Origin: an uncultured Rhizobiaceae group bacterium
GTDB taxonomy: Bacteria; Pseudomonadota; Alphaproteobacteria; Rhizobiales; Rhizobiaceae
DNA: 64,000 nt
Direction of reading: 5' to 3'
Assembly (NCBI GenBank): GCA_947501445.1
Contig: CANMVS010000017.1
Location: 1 to 64,000 of the forward strand
Within the stretch, counting starts at the first letter, position 1. Every line of letters starts with the position of its first letter. Position numbers and translations under genes: made by a program. A model generated the notes under the pieces. The model was not told the DNA's origin and did not search any database. It saw only the letters and a list, made by a program, of their open reading frames with translations. Of the stretch, positions 17,218 through 29,758 are shown piece by piece.

Positions 17218-19170
17218 ATGAACGACCAGAAACCACTTTGGACACCGTCTGAAGCGAATGTGAAATCCGCTGTCGTTACAGAATTTGCGCAATTTTGCGG
17301 TGAACGCTCCGGTCTTGATTTGGCAAATTACGATGATTTGCATGCCTGGTCGATCACTCAGCGCGCTGATTTCTGGTCTGCGATCTGGGATTTTTGCGGT
17401 GTTGAGGGCCACAAAGGCGAGACAATTCTGCAAAACGGCGATGCCATGCCCGGCGCAAGGTTCTTTCCGGATGCAACGCTCAATTTTGCCCAGAACCTGC
17501 TCGCACAGACCGGTCCTGAGGATGCCATTATATTTCGCGGTGAAGAGAAGGTGCGCACCCGCATGAGTTGGGATACACTTCACGCAGAAGTATCCCGCCT
17601 GCAACAGGCATTGTCGGCGCTTGGCGTCGGCGTTGGTGACCGGGTCGCTGCGATGATGCCCAATGTTCCTGAAACCATTGTGGCAATGCTGGCCACCGCC
17701 TCATTGGGAGCAATATGGTCCTCCTGTTCGCCGGATTTCGGCGACAAGGGCGTCCTCGACCGTTTTGGGCAGATCGAACCCAAGGTGTTTTTTGCCTGTG
17801 ATGGCTATTGGTACAATGGCAAGAAGCAGGATGTGACGCAAAAGCTCGAGATTGTCGAAGCGCAGTTGCAACCGCTTAAGACGGTCATCGTTCCCTATGC
17901 CGGTGATGCGGATGGGCTTGTGGGCCGTCTGGCCAATGCCGTTACGCTGGCCGAATTCACGGCGCCCTTTGATGCACGGGAAATCGCCTTTGAGCAACTT
18001 GCCTTTGAACACCCGCTTTATATTCTGTTCTCCTCCGGAACGACAGGGGTTCCAAAGTGTATTGTCCATTCCGCTGGTGGAACATTGTTACAGCACCTGA
18101 AAGAGCAGCAGCTCCATTGCAGTCTGCGTGTGGGAGAACGCCTGTTTTATTTTACCACATGCGGCTGGATGATGTGGAACTGGCTGGTCACGGGCCTCGC
18201 CAGCAAAGCGACGCTGTGCCTTTATGACGGCTCACCATTCTACCCCGACGGCAATGTACTTTTTGACTATGCCGCTGATGAAAAATTCGAGATTTTTGGC
18301 ACTTCTGCCAAGTTTATTGACGCGGTTCGCAAAGCCGGGCTGACGCCGGGCAAAACCCATGATTTGTCCTCGCTGCGTCTGATGACATCGACCGGTTCGC
18401 CGCTCTCGCCCGAGGGATTTTCATTCGTCTATGAGGGTATCAAAAACGATGTGCATCTGGCATCGATTTCCGGCGGCACGGATATTGTTTCATGCTTTGT
18501 GCTTGGGGTGCCGGTCAAACCTGTCTGGCGCGGTGAAATTCAGGGTGCCGGACTGGGAATGGCTGTTGATGTTTGGAACGATGATGGTAAGCCGGTGACA
18601 GGTGAAAAGGGTGAACTTGTCTGCACTGCGGCATTTCCCGCCATGCCTGTCATGTTCTGGAATGATCCGGGTGATGCGAAATACAAGGCAGCCTATTTCG
18701 AACGTTTTGACAATATCTGGTGCCATGGTGATTTTGCCGAGTGGACCGAACATGGCGGTTTGATAATCCATGGCCGCTCCGACGCAACACTGAACCCTGG
18801 CGGCGTGCGTATTGGCACCGCAGAGATCTATAATCAGGTCGAGCAGATGGACGAAGTGCTCGAGGCTCTGTGCATAGGGCAGGACTGGGAAGATGATGTG
18901 CGCGTTGTCCTGTTTGTCCGGCTGGCCGATGGCCAGTTGCTGGATGAGGATCTGACAAAACGGATCAGGACACGGATCAGAACAGGGGCGTCCCCGCGTC
19001 ACGTACCCGCAATCGTTGTTGCCGTTGCCGATATTCCCCGTACGAAGTCAGGCAAGATCACCGAGCTGGCTGTCCGCGACGTCGTGCATGGCAGGGAAGT
19101 GAAGAACCAGGAAGCACTTGCAAACCCGCAGGCGCTTGCGCTCTTCTCCAATCTGGACGTCCTGAAGTAG
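17218..19170 (+). CDS. aacS: Acetoacetyl-CoA synthetase (acetoacetate-CoA ligase)
   Basis: A 650-residue adenylate-forming enzyme that activates acetoacetate with ATP and CoA, feeding PHB and ketone-body carbon into acetyl-CoA. Motifs: the phosphate loop [18 protein letters not shown], the adenine-site region [11 protein letters not shown], the hinge region WCHGDFAEW and the C-terminal SGKITE with the catalytic lysine. Length and the N-terminal [20 protein letters not shown] are those of AacS rather than acetyl-CoA synthetase. The ATG follows GGGAGGG by five bases. Phasin, isocitrate lyase and ScfR genes in the same window support a PHB/acetyl-CoA context. Its 3' end is followed within 20 bp by a dispersed repeat. 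Confidence 0.95.
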
Positions 19171-19187: not shown

Positions 19188-19282
19188 CGTTTCACGTTTT
19201 GTCAGAAGCGGGACAACGGTGTTGGTCGTTGATTTTGTTGATGCATTCAGGTTTTGCCGATCCCGTCAAAACTTCAATTGCT
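19188..19282 (+). repeat. Dispersed ~95 bp intergenic repeat, copy A
   Basis: First of five copies in this window (others at 19538-19632, 49941-50020 reversed, 53416-53511 and 61393-61488). Each begins with a small stem-loop CGTTTC...GAAACG (here GAAGCG) and ends with a longer one, ATTCAGGTTTTG...CAAAACCTGAAT, weakened in this copy to CAAAACTTCAAT. It starts 18 bp after the aacS stop codon. The family sits at 3' ends and between convergent genes, which suggests a role in transcript ends or nucleoid binding, or a small non-autonomous mobile element. Confidence 0.85.
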
Positions 19283-19390
19283 GTATTGAAGGCACCTGTT
19301 GGCTTCATGCGATTATGGTAAATGAAAGGTAAAGCTGAAATTTACTGTGATCGTGACGACAGGCTGTTGGTTACAATTCGTGAACCATTG

Positions 19391-19406
19391 TTAAGGCCTC
19401 GTTAAC
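19391..19406 (+). promoter_or_regulatory. CtrA-type box (TTAA-N7-TTAAC)
   Basis: TTAAGGCCTCGTTAAC matches the alphaproteobacterial CtrA consensus TTAA-N7-TTAAC exactly. A further GTTAAC lies at 19431-19436. The next transcribed-looking unit is the candidate small RNA ending at 19533; no protein gene begins here. CtrA is the cell-cycle response regulator of this class of bacteria. Confidence 0.55.
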
Positions 19407-19436
19407 ACTCCGATCCCTAATATACGATCAGTTAAC

Positions 19437-19533
19437 GTATTCCTCCCACCTGCTTGGGTTGTACCAAAGCAGTGAATACTTGGCTCCATAGACAGCAATA
19501 ACTCAAAAGGTGCGCCAGTCGCACCTTTTTTTT
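19437..19533 (+). ncRNA. Candidate small RNA ending in a strong intrinsic terminator
   Basis: The strand is chosen from the terminator. The first hairpin has outer arms GTATTC (19437-19442) and GAATAC (19474-19479) and an inner stem CTGCTT-GG/CC-A-AAGCAG, with the pyrimidine-rich internal loop CTCCCAC exposed. An unpaired purine/pyrimidine stretch of about 25 bases follows, then a GC-rich hairpin and eight Ts. There is no open frame. A CT-rich anti-Shine-Dalgarno-like loop is typical of several alphaproteobacterial trans-acting RNAs, but this is not one I can name. The 5' end is not determined and may lie a few bases upstream. Alternatively it is only a remote terminator of aacS. Confidence 0.5.
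19506..19533 (+). terminator. Intrinsic terminator of the candidate small RNA
   Basis: AAAGGTGCG, a five-base loop, then CGCACCTTT running into eight Ts (19526-19533). This is the strongest rho-independent terminator in the window. No stop codon lies close upstream: aacS ends 335 bp earlier. Confidence 0.85.
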
Positions 19534-19537
19534 AGAC

Positions 19538-19632
19538 CGTTTCACCTTTTGTCAGAAACGGGACAACAGTGTCAGCCTTTGATTTTGTTGATGCATTCAG
19601 GTTTTTCCGGTCCCGTCAAAACTTGAATTGCT
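19538..19632 (+). repeat. Dispersed ~95 bp intergenic repeat, copy B
   Basis: Second copy, same orientation as copy A, beginning five bases after the terminator T-tract. Together the two copies bracket the candidate small RNA as direct repeats. It also lies 30 bp beyond the stop codon of the minus-strand oxidoreductase gene. Confidence 0.88.
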
Positions 19633-19661: not shown

Positions 19662-20663
19662 TCAGACCCTGATCATCACCTTCCCGTGTTTCTTTCGCGG
19701 CGCACGCAGATATTGCCACGCCTCTGTGAATTCCTCCATGCTAAAGACCCTGTCGACATTCGGTTGAATTTGGCCTGAAGCGAGAGCCTGATAGACAAAA
19801 TCCAGCCCCTTCTTCTTCCATTCTGCGTCTTCAATGTAGTGGAACAATGAATAGGGTTTGAAGGTCGCATTTGCCTGATAAAGTTCCATCATCGGCAGCT
19901 CGGGCAGTTTTTCATCGAGCGTACCAAAGGTGAAAATCTGTGCGTCCTTGGCAAGGGCCTTGCTATATTGCGAGATCATACCGGCGCCTATGGAATCAAA
20001 GACGGCATGCACACCCGCACCATCGGTAAATTCCTGTAACGCCTCCGGCAATCCTTCGCCGTGGCCGATGTAAACGTGGCTGGCACCGCCTTTCATAAGG
20101 TATTCGCGGTTGTACTCAAACCTCGAGGTGGCGATCATGTTTGCGCCCCTGATCCTGCCGATTTCCAGTGCCGAATAGCCTGCCGTACTGGTTGCAGCCG
20201 TCACCAGGATGTTTACGCCGGGGGCGGCCCTGGCAAGTTCGGCTATCGGAAAGTATGCCGTCATAAACTGCATCCAGATTGATCCGGCTTCTGTTGCTTC
20301 CATGCCATCTGGTGCCTTGGTGAGATAGCGCGCATCAATTGTCACCGTGTCTCCGCTGACACCCTTCATGTCGTAAAAATAGGGCAGTGTGCAGTAGCGT
20401 TCGCCCATTTCAATACCGGTGACGCCTTCACCAATCTGATCAACGACACCGACCGCCTCGCAGCCGATGCGCGCCGGCAACTGGCTGAAGTTGAAGGAGT
20501 AGCGGCCCTGCATCAGGTCCATGTCACCCCAGTTGAGAGCAAATGCTTCAACCTTCAATCGGACCTCGCCAGGACCTGCCTGTTTCGGTGTATATTCCCT
20601 CAATTTGATACCGGACAATCCGGAATATTCCGTGACGACCCATTCGCGATTGGAATTTGGCAT
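19662..20663 (-). CDS. Zinc-free medium-chain dehydrogenase (quinone oxidoreductase-like)
   Basis: A 333-residue member of the medium-chain dehydrogenase/reductase superfamily. The N-terminal GroES-like domain includes FALNWGDMDLMQGRYSFNFS and the segment GCEAVGVVDQIGEGVTGIEM. The NADP-binding region reads VTAATSTAGYSALEIGRIRG. The cysteine and histidine zinc ligands of true alcohol dehydrogenases are absent, so it is of the quinone oxidoreductase type, reducing quinones or enones with NADPH. The start at MPNSNREW follows GGAG by nine bases; the open frame runs further upstream without a start site. It is a single gene and the substrate is unknown. Confidence 0.85.
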   Translation of the reverse strand: MPNSNREWVVTEYSGLSGIKLREYTPKQAGPGEVRLKVEAFALNWGDMDLMQGRYSFNFSQLPARIGCEAVGVVDQIGEGVTGIEMGERYCTLPYFYDMKGVSGDTVTIDARYLTKAPDGMEATEAGSIWMQFMTAYFPIAELARAAPGVNILVTAATSTAGYSALEIGRIRGANMIATSRFEYNREYLMKGGASHVYIGHGEGLPEALQEFTDGAGVHAVFDSIGAGMISQYSKALAKDAQIFTFGTLDEKLPELPMMELYQANATFKPYSLFHYIEDAEWKKKGLDFVYQALASGQIQPNVDRVFSMEEFTEAWQYLRAPRKKHGKVMIRV

Positions 20664-21027
20664 TGATTTCGGCTCCCTGATTTTCGATTTGTGTCTGATT
20701 TGCCTGTGCCGGGGACAAGTCCTTCGTTGCGTTACGTACAACGCAGCAGTCACCGACCTATCCCATTCCTGACATGCCGAAAGCGGCAAAGGATGGTCGG
20801 TTCGCAGCCTCCCTTAACCTTGATATTGCAAATTATACAAACTTTATGCAAGAGAAATTTTGTGACCGCTACACAACAGGAAACAAGCAAAGCACACAGA
20901 TTGCATCCCAACCCTTGCGTAAAAACGCAGTTCCCTGTTGGCAAACGGCCACTCACAATTGCCGGTAATGCTTGCAAAGAGCGCCTCATGGACTGCACTG
21001 TCAAAAAGCGGTTTTATTGCGGTAAAT

Positions 21028-21055
21028 TGCCAGGCATGGTGCAATATGCCTGGCA
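21028..21055 (+). promoter_or_regulatory. Perfect 10-bp inverted repeat touching the ribosome-binding site of the MFS gene
   Basis: Arms TGCCAGGCAT and ATGCCTGGCA with an eight-base loop. The right arm ends one base into the AGGAGA ribosome-binding site (21055-21060) of the following gene. As RNA, the hairpin would restrict ribosome access; as DNA, it could be a dimeric repressor operator. The rest of the 20664-21067 gap holds a possible promoter (AT-rich, about 20825-20850) and no gene. Confidence 0.6.
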
Positions 21056-21067
21056 GGAGAAAACTGA

Positions 21068-22240
21068 TTGCGCCCTGAACAACCCTATCTCAGCCTGATG
21101 GTCCTCATTGCTACATCGCTTGTATGTGCTGTGCTTGGTTCAATACATGCGTTTTCTGTCTTTCTTGAGCCGCTGGAAATTGAGTTTGCCGCATCAAGAA
21201 CCGTCGTCTCGCTAACCTATTCGCTGGCGTTGGTTTCATTGACATGTGCCGTGTTGATTGGCCCCAGGTTCTTTGCCCGCTGGTCTGCCGCATCCTTCAT
21301 TCTATTCGTATGTACCCTGGCTGCCTGCGGGTCATTGCTGGCAGGCATGGCCGGCTCGCTGCCGGTGATCTGGCTTGGATACAGTTTGATCTTTGGTGCA
21401 GCCAACGGGTTGGGCTATGGTTTTGGTCTGCAAATTGTCGCGCAGGTCAATCCCGGCCGCGAGGGTATGGCGATGGGCATTGTCACGGCTGCCTATGCGT
21501 TAGGAGCGGTCCTTTCACCGGCATTGTTCAATCTGGCCATTGAGACACGCGGATTTGCGGCCGCGATGCTGTCTCTGGCCGGGGTTCTTGTGGGCGTGGG
21601 GGTGCTTGGTGCCGCACTCCTGCACAAGGCCGGCGCAAAATTCCAGGCTGAAAAACAAATGGCAGCGGGCCGGTTTTCAACCGCCTATGGCGTTCCACTC
21701 CTGTGGCTCGGCTACTTCGCCGGCGTGCTCGCGGGACTGATGGTCATTGGCCATGCGGCCGGAATTGCAGCCTCCTTGAGCCCCGGCATGAAGACCTGGA
21801 TGGCGCCGGTGATCATTGCTGCCTGCAACCTTCTTGGCAGTCTGATTGCTGGCCGTCTTGCCGACAGATTGCCGCTGGCCGGTGTACTGGCAGCGCTTGC
21901 GCTTTTGACAACCGTGGCACTTGCCGCGCTTGCGGTCTTTGCAGGTGTCACAGTTCTGGTGGTTGGTCTGGCATTGGTTGGATTTGCCTATGGCGGCACC
22001 ATCGCAGCCTATCCGGCGGCCATTGCAAAACTTTTTGGCATAGAGCAAAGCGCCAGAATATACGGGCGTGTCTTCACCGCCTGGGGGTGTGCAGGATTGA
22101 TTGGTCCATGGATTGCGGGTTTTCTTTTTGACTGGAGTGGAGACTACCGGTTTGCGCTGCTCACAGCCGCCTCAATGGGCTTGATTTCTGTATTGGTGGT
22201 AACCGTATTATTCAGGCGAGGACGTTATTCCGCCATGTGA
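21068..22240 (+). CDS. Major facilitator superfamily transporter
   Basis: A 390-residue inner-membrane protein with about 12 hydrophobic segments, the size and pattern of the MFS. The first helix is LSLMVLIATSLVCAVLGSIH, and the loop after helix 2 is replaced by short charged turns. A central hydrophilic break (about 185-205, HKAGAKFQAEKQMAAGRFS) separates the two six-helix halves. It resembles oxalate/formate antiporter-like or monocarboxylate carriers, but the substrate is not determinable. The start is TTG at 21068, supported by AGGAGA seven bases upstream. A 10-bp inverted repeat precedes that site and probably regulates it. Confidence 0.85.
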   Translation: MRPEQPYLSLMVLIATSLVCAVLGSIHAFSVFLEPLEIEFAASRTVVSLTYSLALVSLTCAVLIGPRFFARWSAASFILFVCTLAACGSLLAGMAGSLPVIWLGYSLIFGAANGLGYGFGLQIVAQVNPGREGMAMGIVTAAYALGAVLSPALFNLAIETRGFAAAMLSLAGVLVGVGVLGAALLHKAGAKFQAEKQMAAGRFSTAYGVPLLWLGYFAGVLAGLMVIGHAAGIAASLSPGMKTWMAPVIIAACNLLGSLIAGRLADRLPLAGVLAALALLTTVALAALAVFAGVTVLVVGLALVGFAYGGTIAAYPAAIAKLFGIEQSARIYGRVFTAWGCAGLIGPWIAGFLFDWSGDYRFALLTAASMGLISVLVVTVLFRRGRYSAM

Positions 22241-22328
22241 TCAGTCTGGAAAAGTCACGCTGCAGCCTTATGGACATTGCCCTTTTGGTTGTCTATTTCT
22301 CGTCGCTGTACAAGCATGGGGTGACATC

Positions 22329-23138
22329 ATGAATGGACCAGACAGAACAAAACAACTCACCACAGCCAATCTGGCTGCCTGGGAGCAAGCTGCACCCATC
22401 CATCGCCGACATAATCAGGCACATTTGCTGGAAGCATTCAGGACGCCCGGGTATTCCTGCCTTGACCAGATCGAGACCAAACAGCTTGAAACATTGGGGC
22501 TTGACGGAAAGGACGTTGCACAGATTTGTTGTAACAATGGCTGCGAGCTTCTGTCCGTCAAAAATATGGGTGCCGGGCGCTGCGTAGGTTTTGATGGTTC
22601 TCCCGGATTTGTGGCTCAGGGCCGCGAATTGGCACAAGCCAGTGGTCTGGATGTTACATTTGTCTGTACGGATATCTATGACATAGATGAAGCCTATGCC
22701 TTCAATTTTGATCTGGTGACCATTACCATTGGAGTCTTGAGCTGGATGCCTGATCTGCCACGGTTTTTTTCAAAAGTTGCAAACCTCATCAAACCCGGTG
22801 GTGCCTTGTTCATCTATGAGCAGCATCCGATTCTTGAGATGATCAAACCGGGTGATGCGCAAGAACCCATTGACTGGGAATTGTCATATTTCACCAAGGA
22901 GCCTTACGTGGATACGGACGGGCTCGACTATTATGGCGGTGAAAAATACGATGCAAAACCGGCCACATCATTCTCCCACACCATGGCAGAAATCATCATG
23001 GCCAGCGTCAATAACGGTCTGGCGGTTGAACATTTTGAGGAGTTCCCGCATCACATTTCCAACTGCTGGTGGAATGTCGAGGAAGCCGGGATCGGCCTGC
23101 CCATGTGTTATACGCTGGTGCTGCGAAAAAACGTTTGA
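22329..23138 (+). CDS. Class I SAM-dependent methyltransferase
   Basis: A 269-residue cytoplasmic protein. The methyltransferase fold runs from about residue 55 to 180. Motif I is altered from the usual glycine-rich form (VAQICCNNGCELLSVKNMGA), followed by the acidic residue in CVGFDGSPGF. The segment FDLVTITIGVLSWMPDLPRF is the post-I motif region, and IKPGGALFIYEQHPIL is motif III. The altered motif with two adjacent cysteines is typical of one subgroup of small-molecule methyltransferases. The acceptor is unknown. It is close downstream of the MFS gene (88 bp) and may share its function, for example modifying and exporting a compound. Confidence 0.8.
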   Translation: MNGPDRTKQLTTANLAAWEQAAPIHRRHNQAHLLEAFRTPGYSCLDQIETKQLETLGLDGKDVAQICCNNGCELLSVKNMGAGRCVGFDGSPGFVAQGRELAQASGLDVTFVCTDIYDIDEAYAFNFDLVTITIGVLSWMPDLPRFFSKVANLIKPGGALFIYEQHPILEMIKPGDAQEPIDWELSYFTKEPYVDTDGLDYYGGEKYDAKPATSFSHTMAEIIMASVNNGLAVEHFEEFPHHISNCWWNVEEAGIGLPMCYTLVLRKNV

Positions 23139-23175
23139 GCTACATCAGCCGCGCCTGATATTCGCGAAAACACAC

Positions 23176-23213
23176 GCCCTTTTGACGCGGAGCGATTCAT
23201 CGCAAAAAGGGGC
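23176..23213 (+). terminator. Stem-loop after the methyltransferase gene
   Basis: GCCCTTTT at 23176 can pair with AAAAGGGGC near 23213 with one bulge, enclosing a smaller CGAT-tc-ATCG hairpin. The tail is ATTTATTC rather than a clean T-run. It lies between convergent genes and could serve both. Confidence 0.4.
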
Positions 23214-23280: not shown

Positions 23281-24981
23281 CTAACGGCGGACAAATGCGC
23301 GGAACCGGCTGCTGCTGTTGATCATGCTGCGCGAAGCAATAATGACCGGAATGATCCCGACCAGCACGATGATCAGCGATGCCACGGAGGCATCTTCCAC
23401 CTTGGCGCGCGATGCATCTTCATAGACCAGCGTTGCCAATGTGTTGAAATTGAAAGGACGCAGCAAAAGGGTTGCAGAGAGTTCCTTCATGGTATCAACA
23501 AAAACCAGCAGAGCAGCGGTAATAACCGCCGGTCGCATCATCGGCAACAAAATTGACCGGAATGTCTGGTTGGCGTTGCAGCCAAGTGTGCGGGCGGCCA
23601 TGTCCAGATGAGGGGAGAGTTTTTGAAAGCCGGACTCGATGGACCCTTCCGCCATGGTCAAAAAGCGAATGCTGCAGGCATAGACTATTGCCAGGCCTGA
23701 TCCGGTGAGCAACAGCCCAACGGAAAAGCCGAAGGAGGCACGGGTGATTGTATTGACCCAATTATCAAATGCGGCGAGCGGAATTAGTACGCCGAGTGCC
23801 AGCACCGTGCCGGGAATGGCATATCCGAAAGAAGCGATCTTGCCGGTCAGGGAAACGACGGGTTTGCGTGAGACACGTGCCGCATAGGCCAGAACAAACG
23901 CCAGCAACACGGTCAGGACAGCTGTGGCACTGGACACAAGCAGACTGTCCAGCAGCGCTGCGTAAATGCGTCCTTCCAGCAACTGGTCCAATCGTTTGAC
24001 CGCATAGCCACCGAGCACGAAGGCGGGAATGCCAAATCCAAACAATACCGGCAGCGCACATAATGCGGTCGCCACCCAGCGGGCAGAACCCTTGAGTGCA
24101 ACGGGTATGGCGTCATGAACCGCGCTGGTTGTCCGGCTGATGTTGAAACGCTGGCGGCGGCGCGCCCAGCGTTCCACCGACACGGCTGCTGCAGCAATGA
24201 AAAGCATGACGCAGGCAATCTGGGCAGCGCCGGCAAGATTGCCGCGATTGAGCCACGTGTCATAGATAGCGAAGGTCAGCGTATTTACGCCCAGATATTC
24301 CACCGCGCCAATATCATTGATTGTTTCCATCAGCGCCAGTGTAATACCGATCGCCAGAGCAGGGCGCGCCATTGGCAGTTGAATGCGCAGGAACACGGAA
24401 AAACGTGATGCGCCCAGTGTTCGCGCCACATCACTGGCGGATTTTCCCTGCATCATAAATAAGGCGCGTGTTGTCAGATAGACATAGGGATAAAGAACCG
24501 TAGACAGAACCAGAATTGCACCAGAAAGGGAGCGCACCGGCGGGAACCAGTATTCGCCGCCCGTCTGAAACCCGAATATCGCCCTTATCGCCGATTGTAC
24601 CGGGCCGGTGTAATCCAGAAACTCCCCATAGGCATAGGCTGCCAGATAGGTCGGAACGGCAAAAGGCAGCACCAGGGCCCAGGCGAGCGTACGCCGAAAT
24701 GGAAACTCGAACGAGACCACAAGCCAGGCACTCAGAATGCCCATGGTGCCGGCCAGCAAAGCCACACCGCAAAGCAGCAGCAGGGTCGTCCAGACCGCAC
24801 CCGGAACCACATAGCGGATGAGATGCGGCCACTCATCGGTGTGACCGGCCAGAGCCAGATAGAGTAGAGCGGCAACAGGGATCAGCACGAAGACAGCGAT
24901 AAAAACCGCAAAAGACAACAGGACGGGATTCGTCCCTGCCTTTGCATTGTTCTGATAGCGTGCCAGCGGCGAAGTGAGCAT
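23281..24981 (-). CDS. Ferric iron-type ABC transporter permease (FbpB/AfuB family)
   Basis: A 566-residue inner-membrane protein made of two fused permease halves, about 12 helices in all. Each half has an ATPase-docking loop: SASDVARTLGASRFSVFLRI in the first and DMAARTLGCNANQTFRSILL in the second. The fused two-domain form is typical of FbpB/SfuB iron(III) importers and of ThiP. An iron role is favoured by an Irr/ICE-like palindrome at 25122-25150. The start at ATG 24981 gives a family-like N-terminus; a TTG at 25044 would add 21 residues. No binding protein or ATPase gene is adjacent, which is unusual, so partners must be elsewhere. Confidence 0.88.
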   Translation of the reverse strand: MLTSPLARYQNNAKAGTNPVLLSFAVFIAVFVLIPVAALLYLALAGHTDEWPHLIRYVVPGAVWTTLLLLCGVALLAGTMGILSAWLVVSFEFPFRRTLAWALVLPFAVPTYLAAYAYGEFLDYTGPVQSAIRAIFGFQTGGEYWFPPVRSLSGAILVLSTVLYPYVYLTTRALFMMQGKSASDVARTLGASRFSVFLRIQLPMARPALAIGITLALMETINDIGAVEYLGVNTLTFAIYDTWLNRGNLAGAAQIACVMLFIAAAAVSVERWARRRQRFNISRTTSAVHDAIPVALKGSARWVATALCALPVLFGFGIPAFVLGGYAVKRLDQLLEGRIYAALLDSLLVSSATAVLTVLLAFVLAYAARVSRKPVVSLTGKIASFGYAIPGTVLALGVLIPLAAFDNWVNTITRASFGFSVGLLLTGSGLAIVYACSIRFLTMAEGSIESGFQKLSPHLDMAARTLGCNANQTFRSILLPMMRPAVITAALLVFVDTMKELSATLLLRPFNFNTLATLVYEDASRAKVEDASVASLIIVLVGIIPVIIASRSMINSSSRFRAFVRR

Positions 24982-25121
24982 TAACGATATGGCCTGATCG
25001 ATGAACCGACTTGCAGTCCTGAATAGATGACGTCGCTTCGGCAATTGAAATGCCGATGTGATCGGATGGTGTCATGTTTCGAAGCAGAATTGCACGGCCA
25101 GGTCAAGAAAAACTGTAAAAT

Positions 25122-29080: not shown

Positions 29081-29536
29081 ATGGCTACCAAGAAAACAGT
29101 TACTGAAGACGCATTCGCATTCGCAGCATTCGACCCTGCAAACATGACCGAATCCTATCGTGAATTTGCTGAAAAAGGTGTTGCTCAGTCAAAAGAAGCT
29201 TATGACAAGCTGAAAACTGCGACTGAAGACGCAACAAAGTCTGTTGAGCAGACACTTGAAACTGCCCAGGCTGGCACCGTTGAACTGGGTATGAAGGCTA
29301 TCGATGCCGTTCGCACCAACGCTGACACATCGCTTTCGCACATTGAAGCACTGATGGGTGTTAAATCCGTCGCTCAATTGTTCGAACTGCAGACAAGCTT
29401 TGTTCGCAAGCAGGTTGAAGCCACAGCCGAGCAGGTCAAAACATTTCATGAAGCTACCCGCAAGGTTGCTGAAGATGTTTCCAAGCCTGCCAAGGCTGCT
29501 TATGAGAATGCAGCAAAAAACTTCAAGGCAACCTGA
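29081..29536 (+). CDS. Phasin (PHB granule-associated protein)
   Basis: A 151-residue, all-helical, Ala- and Lys/Glu-rich protein of the phasin 2 family. It contains FAFAAFDPANMTESYREFAE, then AEKGVAQSKEAYDKLKTATE and the middle segment VKSVAQLFELQTSFVRKQVE typical of rhizobial phasins. Phasins coat polyhydroxybutyrate granules and limit their size. The ATG at 29081 follows AGGAG by eight bases, whereas the upstream in-frame ATG lacks a site. It is followed by a strong terminator, so it is transcribed alone. Codon use is highly biased (GCT, GAA, AAG), consistent with high expression. The upstream palindrome suggests PhaR control. Confidence 0.92.
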   Translation: MATKKTVTEDAFAFAAFDPANMTESYREFAEKGVAQSKEAYDKLKTATEDATKSVEQTLETAQAGTVELGMKAIDAVRTNADTSLSHIEALMGVKSVAQLFELQTSFVRKQVEATAEQVKTFHEATRKVAEDVSKPAKAAYENAAKNFKAT

Positions 29537-29570
29537 ACCCTGTTCAACAAAGGCCCTTGATTATCTTTTG

Positions 29571-29602
29571 AAAGCCGGTCCGTTTTGGTCCGGCTTTTTT
29601 TT
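29571..29602 (+). terminator. Intrinsic terminator of the phasin gene
   Basis: AAAGCCGG pairs with CCGGCTTT around an 11-base loop, and eight Ts follow, ending at 29602. It begins 34 bases after the phasin stop codon. Confidence 0.9.
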
Positions 29603-29680
29603 GTGCTTTGTCCACCTGCACCCCCTTGCCAAAAGGTCTGTAGGAACGTATGTGACGCGTCAGTATTTTAAGCGCATTGT

Positions 29681-29758
29681 GCGGTTGTAGCTCAGTTAGG
29701 TTAGAGCGCTGGATTGTGGATCCAGAGGTCGGTGGTTCGAGTCCACCCAACCGTACCA
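29681..29758 (+). tRNA. tRNA-His (anticodon GTG), CCA encoded
   Basis: A complete cloverleaf: acceptor GCGGTTG/CAACCGT, D arm AGCTCAGTT-AGG-TTAGAGC, anticodon stem CTGGA-TTGTGGA-TCCAG with anticodon GTG, T arm GGTGG-TTCGAGT-CCACC and a genome-encoded CCA. The base before position 1 is T and the discriminator is A, so the usual G-1:C73 identity pair is missing. That loss is a known trait of most Alphaproteobacteria, whose HisRS has adapted to it. Confidence 0.97.

What the first reader, a model, noticed from the sequence alone, without database searches (positions are those of the whole stretch)
19188..19632. Candidate CtrA-linked small RNA bracketed by two copies of a dispersed repeat
The 490 bp gap between aacS and the convergent oxidoreductase gene has no protein gene, but contains a perfect TTAA-N7-TTAAC box (19391), a second GTTAAC (19431), a hairpin with an exposed CTCCCAC loop (19437-19479), a linker and a strong intrinsic terminator (19506-19533). 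The unit is flanked by direct copies of the 95 bp repeat. Box, structured RNA and terminator in this order look like an independently transcribed RNA. An anti-Shine-Dalgarno-like loop would suit a trans-acting regulator of mRNAs.
Basis: partly seen in the sequence, partly recalled or inferred. Interest (0 to 1): 0.75.

Follow-up and report, generated by a model that had tools for sequence, protein, structure and literature searches.

The report
CtrA-box small RNA beside aacS
A short non-coding RNA gene next to the metabolic gene aacS is kept in many related bacteria, usually with a likely binding site for the cell-cycle master switch CtrA at a fixed distance in front of it, which suggests that the cell cycle controls this RNA.

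Summary
The unit lies 3' of aacS in the window and all seven congeneric genomes, and diverged relatives lie 3' of aacS across GTDB Rhizobiaceae. A covariance model hits 281 of 394 family genomes at E<=0.001 (weak hits unchecked). A model built without the genus still ranks the window unit first in 64 kb (E 0.00066).

The CtrA link is strongly supported. Of 74 non-redundant upstream regions from other genera, 53 carry exact TAA-N7-TTAA and 15 more have one mismatch; other spacings give 0-3. The box lies 27-29 nt before the RNA's 5' end, as at measured CtrA-activated promoters. Nine of nine fetched lower-scoring units without aacS upstream keep the exact box. CtrA is encoded here; other perfect boxes of this genome lie beside ftsZ, ftsK, rpoD and flagellin, among others.

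Not supported: the CTCCCAC anti-Shine-Dalgarno loop (not conserved) and a role for the repeats. Proposed: a CtrA-activated, ~104-nt, trans-acting sRNA whose conserved unpaired GACAGCA linker pairs with unknown targets. No Rfam family matched. Expression, CtrA binding and targets are untested.

The parts
19391..19406 (+). CtrA box TTAA-N7-TTAAC, about -39 to -24 from the predicted start
   Evidence: only perfect site in 64 kb; the congeners have TTAA-N7-TTAG; TAA-N7-TTAA at matching place in 53 of 74 other representatives
19418..19423 (+). -10-like element TAATAT (TAnnAT kept in the genus)
   Evidence: invariant T79, A80, A83, T84 in the alignment of 7 genus members; role inferred
19430..19533 (+). 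proposed small RNA, about 104 nt; start A19430 inferred from the 24-nt box-to-start distance
   Evidence: fold z -3.2; model R1 hit 19434-19534 (window was in its seed); model R2 without the genus hits 19489-19534
19431..19485 (+). 5' hairpin; core helix 19437-19442 with 19474-19479 (GTATTC/GAATAC)
   Evidence: fold; weak covariation, inconclusive inside the genus
19491..19497 (+). GACAGCA linker, unpaired in the predicted fold, proposed seed
   Evidence: ACAGCA kept in the genus and in most of the 41 aligned units; role inferred
19505..19533 (+). intrinsic terminator
   Evidence: fold; 5 of 7 pairs with compensatory changes over 41 units
17218..19170 (+). aacS, conserved upstream neighbour
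   Evidence: unit within 500 nt 3' of aacS in 8 of 8 genus loci
19188..19282 (+). 95-bp dispersed repeat, copy 1; judged not part of the RNA gene
19538..19632 (+). 95-bp dispersed repeat, copy 2; judged not part of the RNA gene

Best explanation
The region encodes a stand-alone small non-coding RNA of about 104 nt (about 19430-19533, plus strand), a diverged member of an aacS-adjacent sRNA family of Rhizobiaceae in the GTDB sense. Phosphorylated CtrA binds TTAA-N7-TTAAC at about -39 to -24 and recruits RNA polymerase to a promoter with only a -10-like element, so transcription should follow CtrA activity in the cell cycle. The RNA folds into a 5' hairpin, an unpaired GACAGCA linker and a strong terminator. 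It most likely acts in trans by pairing the linker with mRNAs, perhaps with Hfq on the U tail. Shown here: conservation, fixed box geometry, terminator covariation, linkage, and a CtrA gene. Inferred: CtrA binding and activation, the start site, trans action, the seed, Hfq, and every target.
For: Unit in all 7 congeners by one of two queries, 3' of aacS. 42 of 88 aacS-downstream regions carry it; R1 adds L040, L042, L045 and L061, not in its seed. R2, built without the genus, finds the window unit (E 0.00066) and 8 of 8 genus loci. TAA-N7-TTAA: 23 of 42 units against 0-3 at other spacings and at most 4 in 200 shuffles (one of the 23, L020, lies in inserted DNA); 50 of 60 and 21 of 30 model hits whose upstream DNA was not modelled; 53 of 74 after redundancy removal, at 27-29 nt. 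9 of 9 lower-scoring units without aacS in the fetched upstream DNA keep the exact box. The gap of 23-25 nt matches 23-24 nt at R. sphaeroides CtrA promoters (PMC6180460 passages). CtrA 84% identical. Other perfect boxes lie by ftsZ, ftsK, rpoD, flagellin.
Against: No transcript or CtrA binding was seen. The seven congeners have one mismatch (TTAG), and the window genus has a 4-nt longer gap unless the start lies at 19430. Hairpin 1 is not conserved in two congeners and its covariation is inconclusive in the genus (249 of 3000 permutations as good). R2 matches only the linker and terminator in the window. In the congener G005 R1 gave no hit with the strict filters. Several perfect boxes of the genome lie by genes with no known cell-cycle role, or overlap frames. 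No pairing signal with aacS or ctrA.
Confidence: 0.75

Rival explanations
1. It is the 3' UTR and terminator of aacS, perhaps processed into an RNA, and the box is incidental or only a CtrA site on the chromosome.
For: 51 of 60 and 29 of 30 fetched model hits lie 3' of aacS; no sigma-70-type promoter was found by the simple scan.
Against: Box and RNA 5' end keep a fixed distance of 27-29 nt. 9 of 9 lower-scoring units without aacS upstream, and the one such unit of the top 30, keep the exact box.
Confidence: 0.1
2. The RNA gene is real but the box is used by another regulator, or CtrA represses rather than activates it.
For: No binding data; some spacer letters are also conserved (0.9-1.2 bits at four of seven positions), which CtrA would not need; the congeners read TTAG.
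Against: The N7 spacing and half-sites equal the S. meliloti CtrA consensus TAA-N7-TTAAC (PMC3616915 passages). In Caulobacter full sites near -35 activate, half-sites over -10 repress (PMC4287350 passages). Other perfect boxes of this genome lie by ftsZ, ftsK, rpoD and flagellin.
Confidence: 0.12
3. The RNA works through its CTCCCAC loop as an anti-Shine-Dalgarno regulator, like the alphaR8 or cuckoo-type RNAs.
For: UUCCUCCCA at 19440-19448 resembles the alphaR8 10-mer UUUCCUCCCU (PMC12559287 passages) and lies in a loop of the fold.
Against: CCTCC/CTCCC in 2 of 8 genus members and in 16 of 74 representatives, against 11.2 +/- 2.6 by shuffling.
Confidence: 0.08

Closest known systems
CcnA (Caulobacter crescentus, CtrA-dependent ncRNA)
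   Same: Stand-alone ncRNA with a predicted CtrA site and CtrA-dependent expression (PMC8959179 passages).
   Different: Lies in the replication origin and acts through a CCCC loop on ctrA and gcrA mRNAs; here aacS-linked, no such loop conserved, no pairing signal with the ctrA leader. The authors did not clearly detect a homologue in S. meliloti.
GspR and EcpR1 (S. meliloti cell-cycle sRNAs)
   Same: sRNAs tied to cell-cycle genes in Rhizobiaceae (PMC5928217 passages; PMC7143759 passages).
   Different: GspR lies between SMc03844 and SMc03845 and was found only in Sinorhizobium; EcpR1 is described as ppGpp-induced (legend). No CtrA-box promoter is described in what I saw.
alphaR8 family (MmgR, SisA-D)
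   Same: Hairpin, C/U-rich stretch and terminator; MmgR is linked to storage carbon.
   Different: alphaR8 is linked to an FGase gene and shares a 10-mer; here aacS-linked, and the C/U-rich stretch is not conserved.
SmelC165 (S. meliloti trans-sRNA)
   Same: About 116 nt, Rhizobiaceae-wide without A. tumefaciens, complete microsynteny, poly-U end (PMC3927594 passages and sections; coordinates from PMC7143759 table).
   Different: Neighbours not named in the text I saw; atypical terminator stem; 1.38 Mb to tmRNA against 1.68-1.91 Mb in six genomes of two unnamed genera. Identity neither shown nor excluded.

Membership tests
CtrA-activated promoter | TAA-N7-TTAAC / TTAA-N7-TTAA box | tested here: met
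   perfect in the window; one mismatch in 7 of 7 congeners; 53 of 74 exact elsewhere
CtrA-activated promoter | box near -35, end 23-24 nt before the start | tested here: met
   23-25 nt to the RNA 5' end in the exact cases; starts are inferred from sequence, not mapped; 4 nt more in the window genus unless the start is 19430
CtrA-activated promoter | CtrA binding and CtrA-dependent transcription | not testable with these tools
   needs ChIP, footprint or depletion data
trans-encoded sRNA | own promoter, no ORF, intrinsic terminator, conserved structure | tested here: met
   transcription itself not shown
trans-encoded sRNA | base-pairing with target mRNAs | not tested
   only the aacS start region (32 loci) and the ctrA leader were tried, without signal
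CcnA | homologous sequence, location at the origin, CCCC loop A | tested here: not met
   location next to aacS; no CCCC in the window RNA; sequence homology itself not tested
alphaR8 (MmgR/SisA) | single-stranded UUUCCUCCCU core and FGase linkage | tested here: not met
   similar stretch in the window but CCTCC/CTCCC in 2 of 8 genus members; aacS-linked
any Rfam 15 family | covariance-model match at gathering score | tested here: not met
   permissive searches gave only weak hits below gathering scores in the window and none in 6 homologous loci
SmelC165 | same locus in S. meliloti 1021 | tested here: inconclusive

The most novel reading that the evidence does not exclude
A family-wide RNA arm of the CtrA regulon: most Rhizobiaceae make a cell-cycle-phased sRNA from a CtrA promoter of fixed geometry, and its GACAGCA seed resets cell-cycle, envelope or storage-carbon mRNAs before division, doing in this family what CcnA does in Caulobacter.
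Probability: 0.35. Interest if true: 0.8.

Novelty: new member of a known kind. Interest (0 to 1): 0.62.

Why it matters
CtrA is the best studied cell-cycle switch of these bacteria. In the main text of the S. meliloti CtrA study the words sRNA, small RNA and non-coding do not occur. A CtrA box held at one distance from an sRNA over many genera would add a conserved RNA output to that circuit, testable at once in existing CtrA-depletion strains and published ChIP-seq data.

Tried and rejected
Rfam: no family at gathering score in the window or in 16 aacS loci; permissive searches gave four weak hits in the window region (best STnc40, E 0.3) and none in 6 loci. BLASTN outside the genus: 0 of 53 genomes; none in plasmids. 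Solved by reading aacS-downstream DNA (32 of 80 loci printed) and by covariance models. RNAalifold on the genus recovered only the terminator. Covariation of hairpin 1: permutation 0 of 2000 over the family, not corrected for relatedness, but 249 of 3000 in the genus. Pairing with the aacS start region (32 loci, mean z -0.22) or the ctrA leader (88 of 300 shuffles as good): none. Small protein: no ATG frame of 8 or more codons in the window RNA, differing ones in the four relatives tried. SmelC165 as the same locus: distances did not fit. The strict motif count (36 of 88) includes a probable false hit, L019, which one search did not keep.

Rows dropped: L020 (inserted DNA) from the alignment; the eight genus loci, L049, L029 and L036 from the count of 74 (L029 and L036 have the exact box but no AAC anchor). 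The 60 loci were picked by me from the printed hits for spread of genera, not at random, out of 281 genomes with hits.

Full report
Observation. The 490-bp gap between aacS (ends 19170) and the convergent oxidoreductase frame (19662) holds no plausible protein gene. TTAA-N7-TTAAC at 19391 is the only perfect site in 64 kb, where shuffles expect 0.11; the genome has 19 distinct perfect sites (26 rows). The hairpin, linker and terminator fold as described. The repeats are real: 95 bp, 89% alike, from an element with at least 41 matches in the genome. A simple scan found no sigma-70-type promoter and missed the terminator.

Relatives in the genus. BLASTN with the unit finds 6 of 7 congeners, and a congener's unit finds the seventh, G003. 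In 8 of 8 genus loci the unit starts within 500 nt 3' of aacS. I listed frames in four of them: in G006, G005 and G002 the next gene is a convergent transporter permease; G001 has another gene there. In the window that permease is at 23281-25044, so the 19.66-23.2 kb genes look like later arrivals or a rearrangement. Conserved pieces in the alignment of 7 members are TTAA-N5-CGTTA, TAnnATA, TTAA, ACAGCA and the terminator. The seven congeners read TTAA-N7-TTAG, one mismatch from the box. The CTCCCAC loop is not kept.

A wider family. DNA 3' of aacS in 80 loci of other genera (32 of them printed) often shows the same order: box, AACTTGAG-like 5' end, variable 5' hairpin, (G)ACAGCA linker, strong terminator. 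A regex-plus-folding rule finds 42 of 88 loci (8 genus, 34 others). Model R1, built from 41 of these including the window, adds L040, L042, L045 and L061, which were not in its seed. It gave no hit at E<=0.001 in the two Brucella loci, the Falsochrobactrum locus or many loci of other families. R1 hits 281 of 394 family genomes and 89 of 109 genera at E<=0.001; hits near 1e-4 were not checked and some will be chance, and the strict filters missed the congener G005. In the own genome the next best hit has E 0.003, so the gene looks single-copy. Model R2, built without the window's genus, still finds the window unit first in 64 kb (E 0.00066, only over linker and terminator; next hits 0.015 and 0.044) and all eight genus loci (E 4e-6 to 0.0036).

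The box. In the 42 units, TAA-N7-TTAA occurs in 23, while every other spacing from 0 to 15 occurs in 0-3; 200 shuffles gave at most 4. One of the 23 (L020) lies in inserted DNA. In loci fetched from model hits, where the model does not include upstream DNA, 50 of 60 and 21 of 30 have the exact box; other spacings occur in 0-5 of 60 and 0 of 30. Several of the 30 are close to seed sequences. Pooling 121 upstream regions and removing those 80% or more identical leaves 74: 53 exact, 15 with one mismatch, 6 with more; the exact ones sit 27, 28 or 29 nt (6, 41, 6) before the RNA. The seven half-site letters carry 1.15-2.0 bits. The two letters before the box and four of the seven spacer letters also carry 0.9-1.2 bits; the other flanking letters carry 0.03-0.54. 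This alignment was anchored on the best box within 7 offsets, which favours the box. Nine of the 60 have no aacS detected in the 1.3 kb upstream, and all nine keep the exact box, as does the one such unit of the top 30. So the box goes with the RNA, not with aacS.

Geometry and regulator. PMC6180460 (passages) reports 23-24 nt between CtrA-site end and start in R. sphaeroides. PMC4287350 (passages) places activating full sites near -35 and repressing half-sites over -10, and counts 6 non-coding RNAs among Caulobacter promoters with CtrA motifs. Here TTAA ends 23-25 nt before the RNA's conserved 5' end. Applied to the window, the start is A19430 (inferred). The S. meliloti consensus is TAA-N7-TTAAC (PMC3616915 passages). 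In agrobacteria, predicted CtrA sites were reported to lie further upstream than in Caulobacter (PMC10469942 passages), which does not fit this geometry as well. As a control I scanned 20 frames next to the other 18 perfect sites: ftsZ and lpxC, ftsK, a primary sigma factor, histidine kinases, flagellin, a response regulator, an L,D-transpeptidase and a DUF1465 protein (RcdA family, recalled). Others look unrelated (Cas1, FeeM, an AAA protein, polyprenyl synthase, adenine glycosylase, hydrolases), two have no Pfam match, and some sites overlap frames.

Structure. The terminator stem changes from GGTGCG/CGCACC in the genus to GGCAGC, GGGCGG and GGCGTC forms elsewhere, with compensatory changes at 5 of 7 pairs. 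The 5' stem changes from GTATTC/GAATAC in the window, G006 and G007 to CTTGAG with CTCAAG or CTCGAG in other genera, but the permutation support is confounded by relatedness and is lacking inside the genus, and G001 and G004 fold no better than shuffles.

Function. The most constant unpaired part is the GACAGCA linker, which I propose as the seed; Ensifer- and Pararhizobium-type units read TTAGCAT there. I found no pairing signal with the aacS start region or the ctrA leader, and no target was identified. Relatives by role are CcnA, EcpR1 and GspR; none matches in the features that I could compare. Ten paper searches listed no paper that I recognised as describing an aacS-linked or CtrA-driven sRNA in this family. 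I read passages or sections of ten papers, not whole texts. Subscription papers and supplements were not seen, so the transcript may be listed somewhere under another name; SmelC165 is the nearest candidate and was not confirmed.

Noticed in passing
19188-19282, 19538-19632: 95-bp dispersed repeat with at least 41 matches at 91% or more identity in this genome; no strong fold on either strand; two copies bracket the sRNA.
   Followed up: partly
19662-23200: Oxidoreductase, transporter-like and methyltransferase-like frames stand between the sRNA and the iron-transport-like permease; in three congeners the permease follows the sRNA directly.
   Followed up: partly
29519-29603: Weak R1/R2 match (E 0.0045 and 0.015), mainly a terminator hairpin, just upstream of a tRNA at 29681-29755.
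   Followed up: no
L194, L207, L212, L222, L226, L246: Units with no aacS detected upstream whose boxes read TTAA-N7-TTAAA or TTAAT; some genomes have more than one model hit, so relocated or duplicated copies may exist.
   Followed up: partly
L255:2000 and L265:1998: Perfect CtrA-type boxes next to a Cas1-like gene and an N-acyl amino acid synthase (FeeM) gene of this genome.
   Followed up: no
L020:4544-4765: The sRNA unit of this Rhizobium locus is interrupted by about 100 bp of extra sequence with inverted-repeat character by eye.
   Followed up: no
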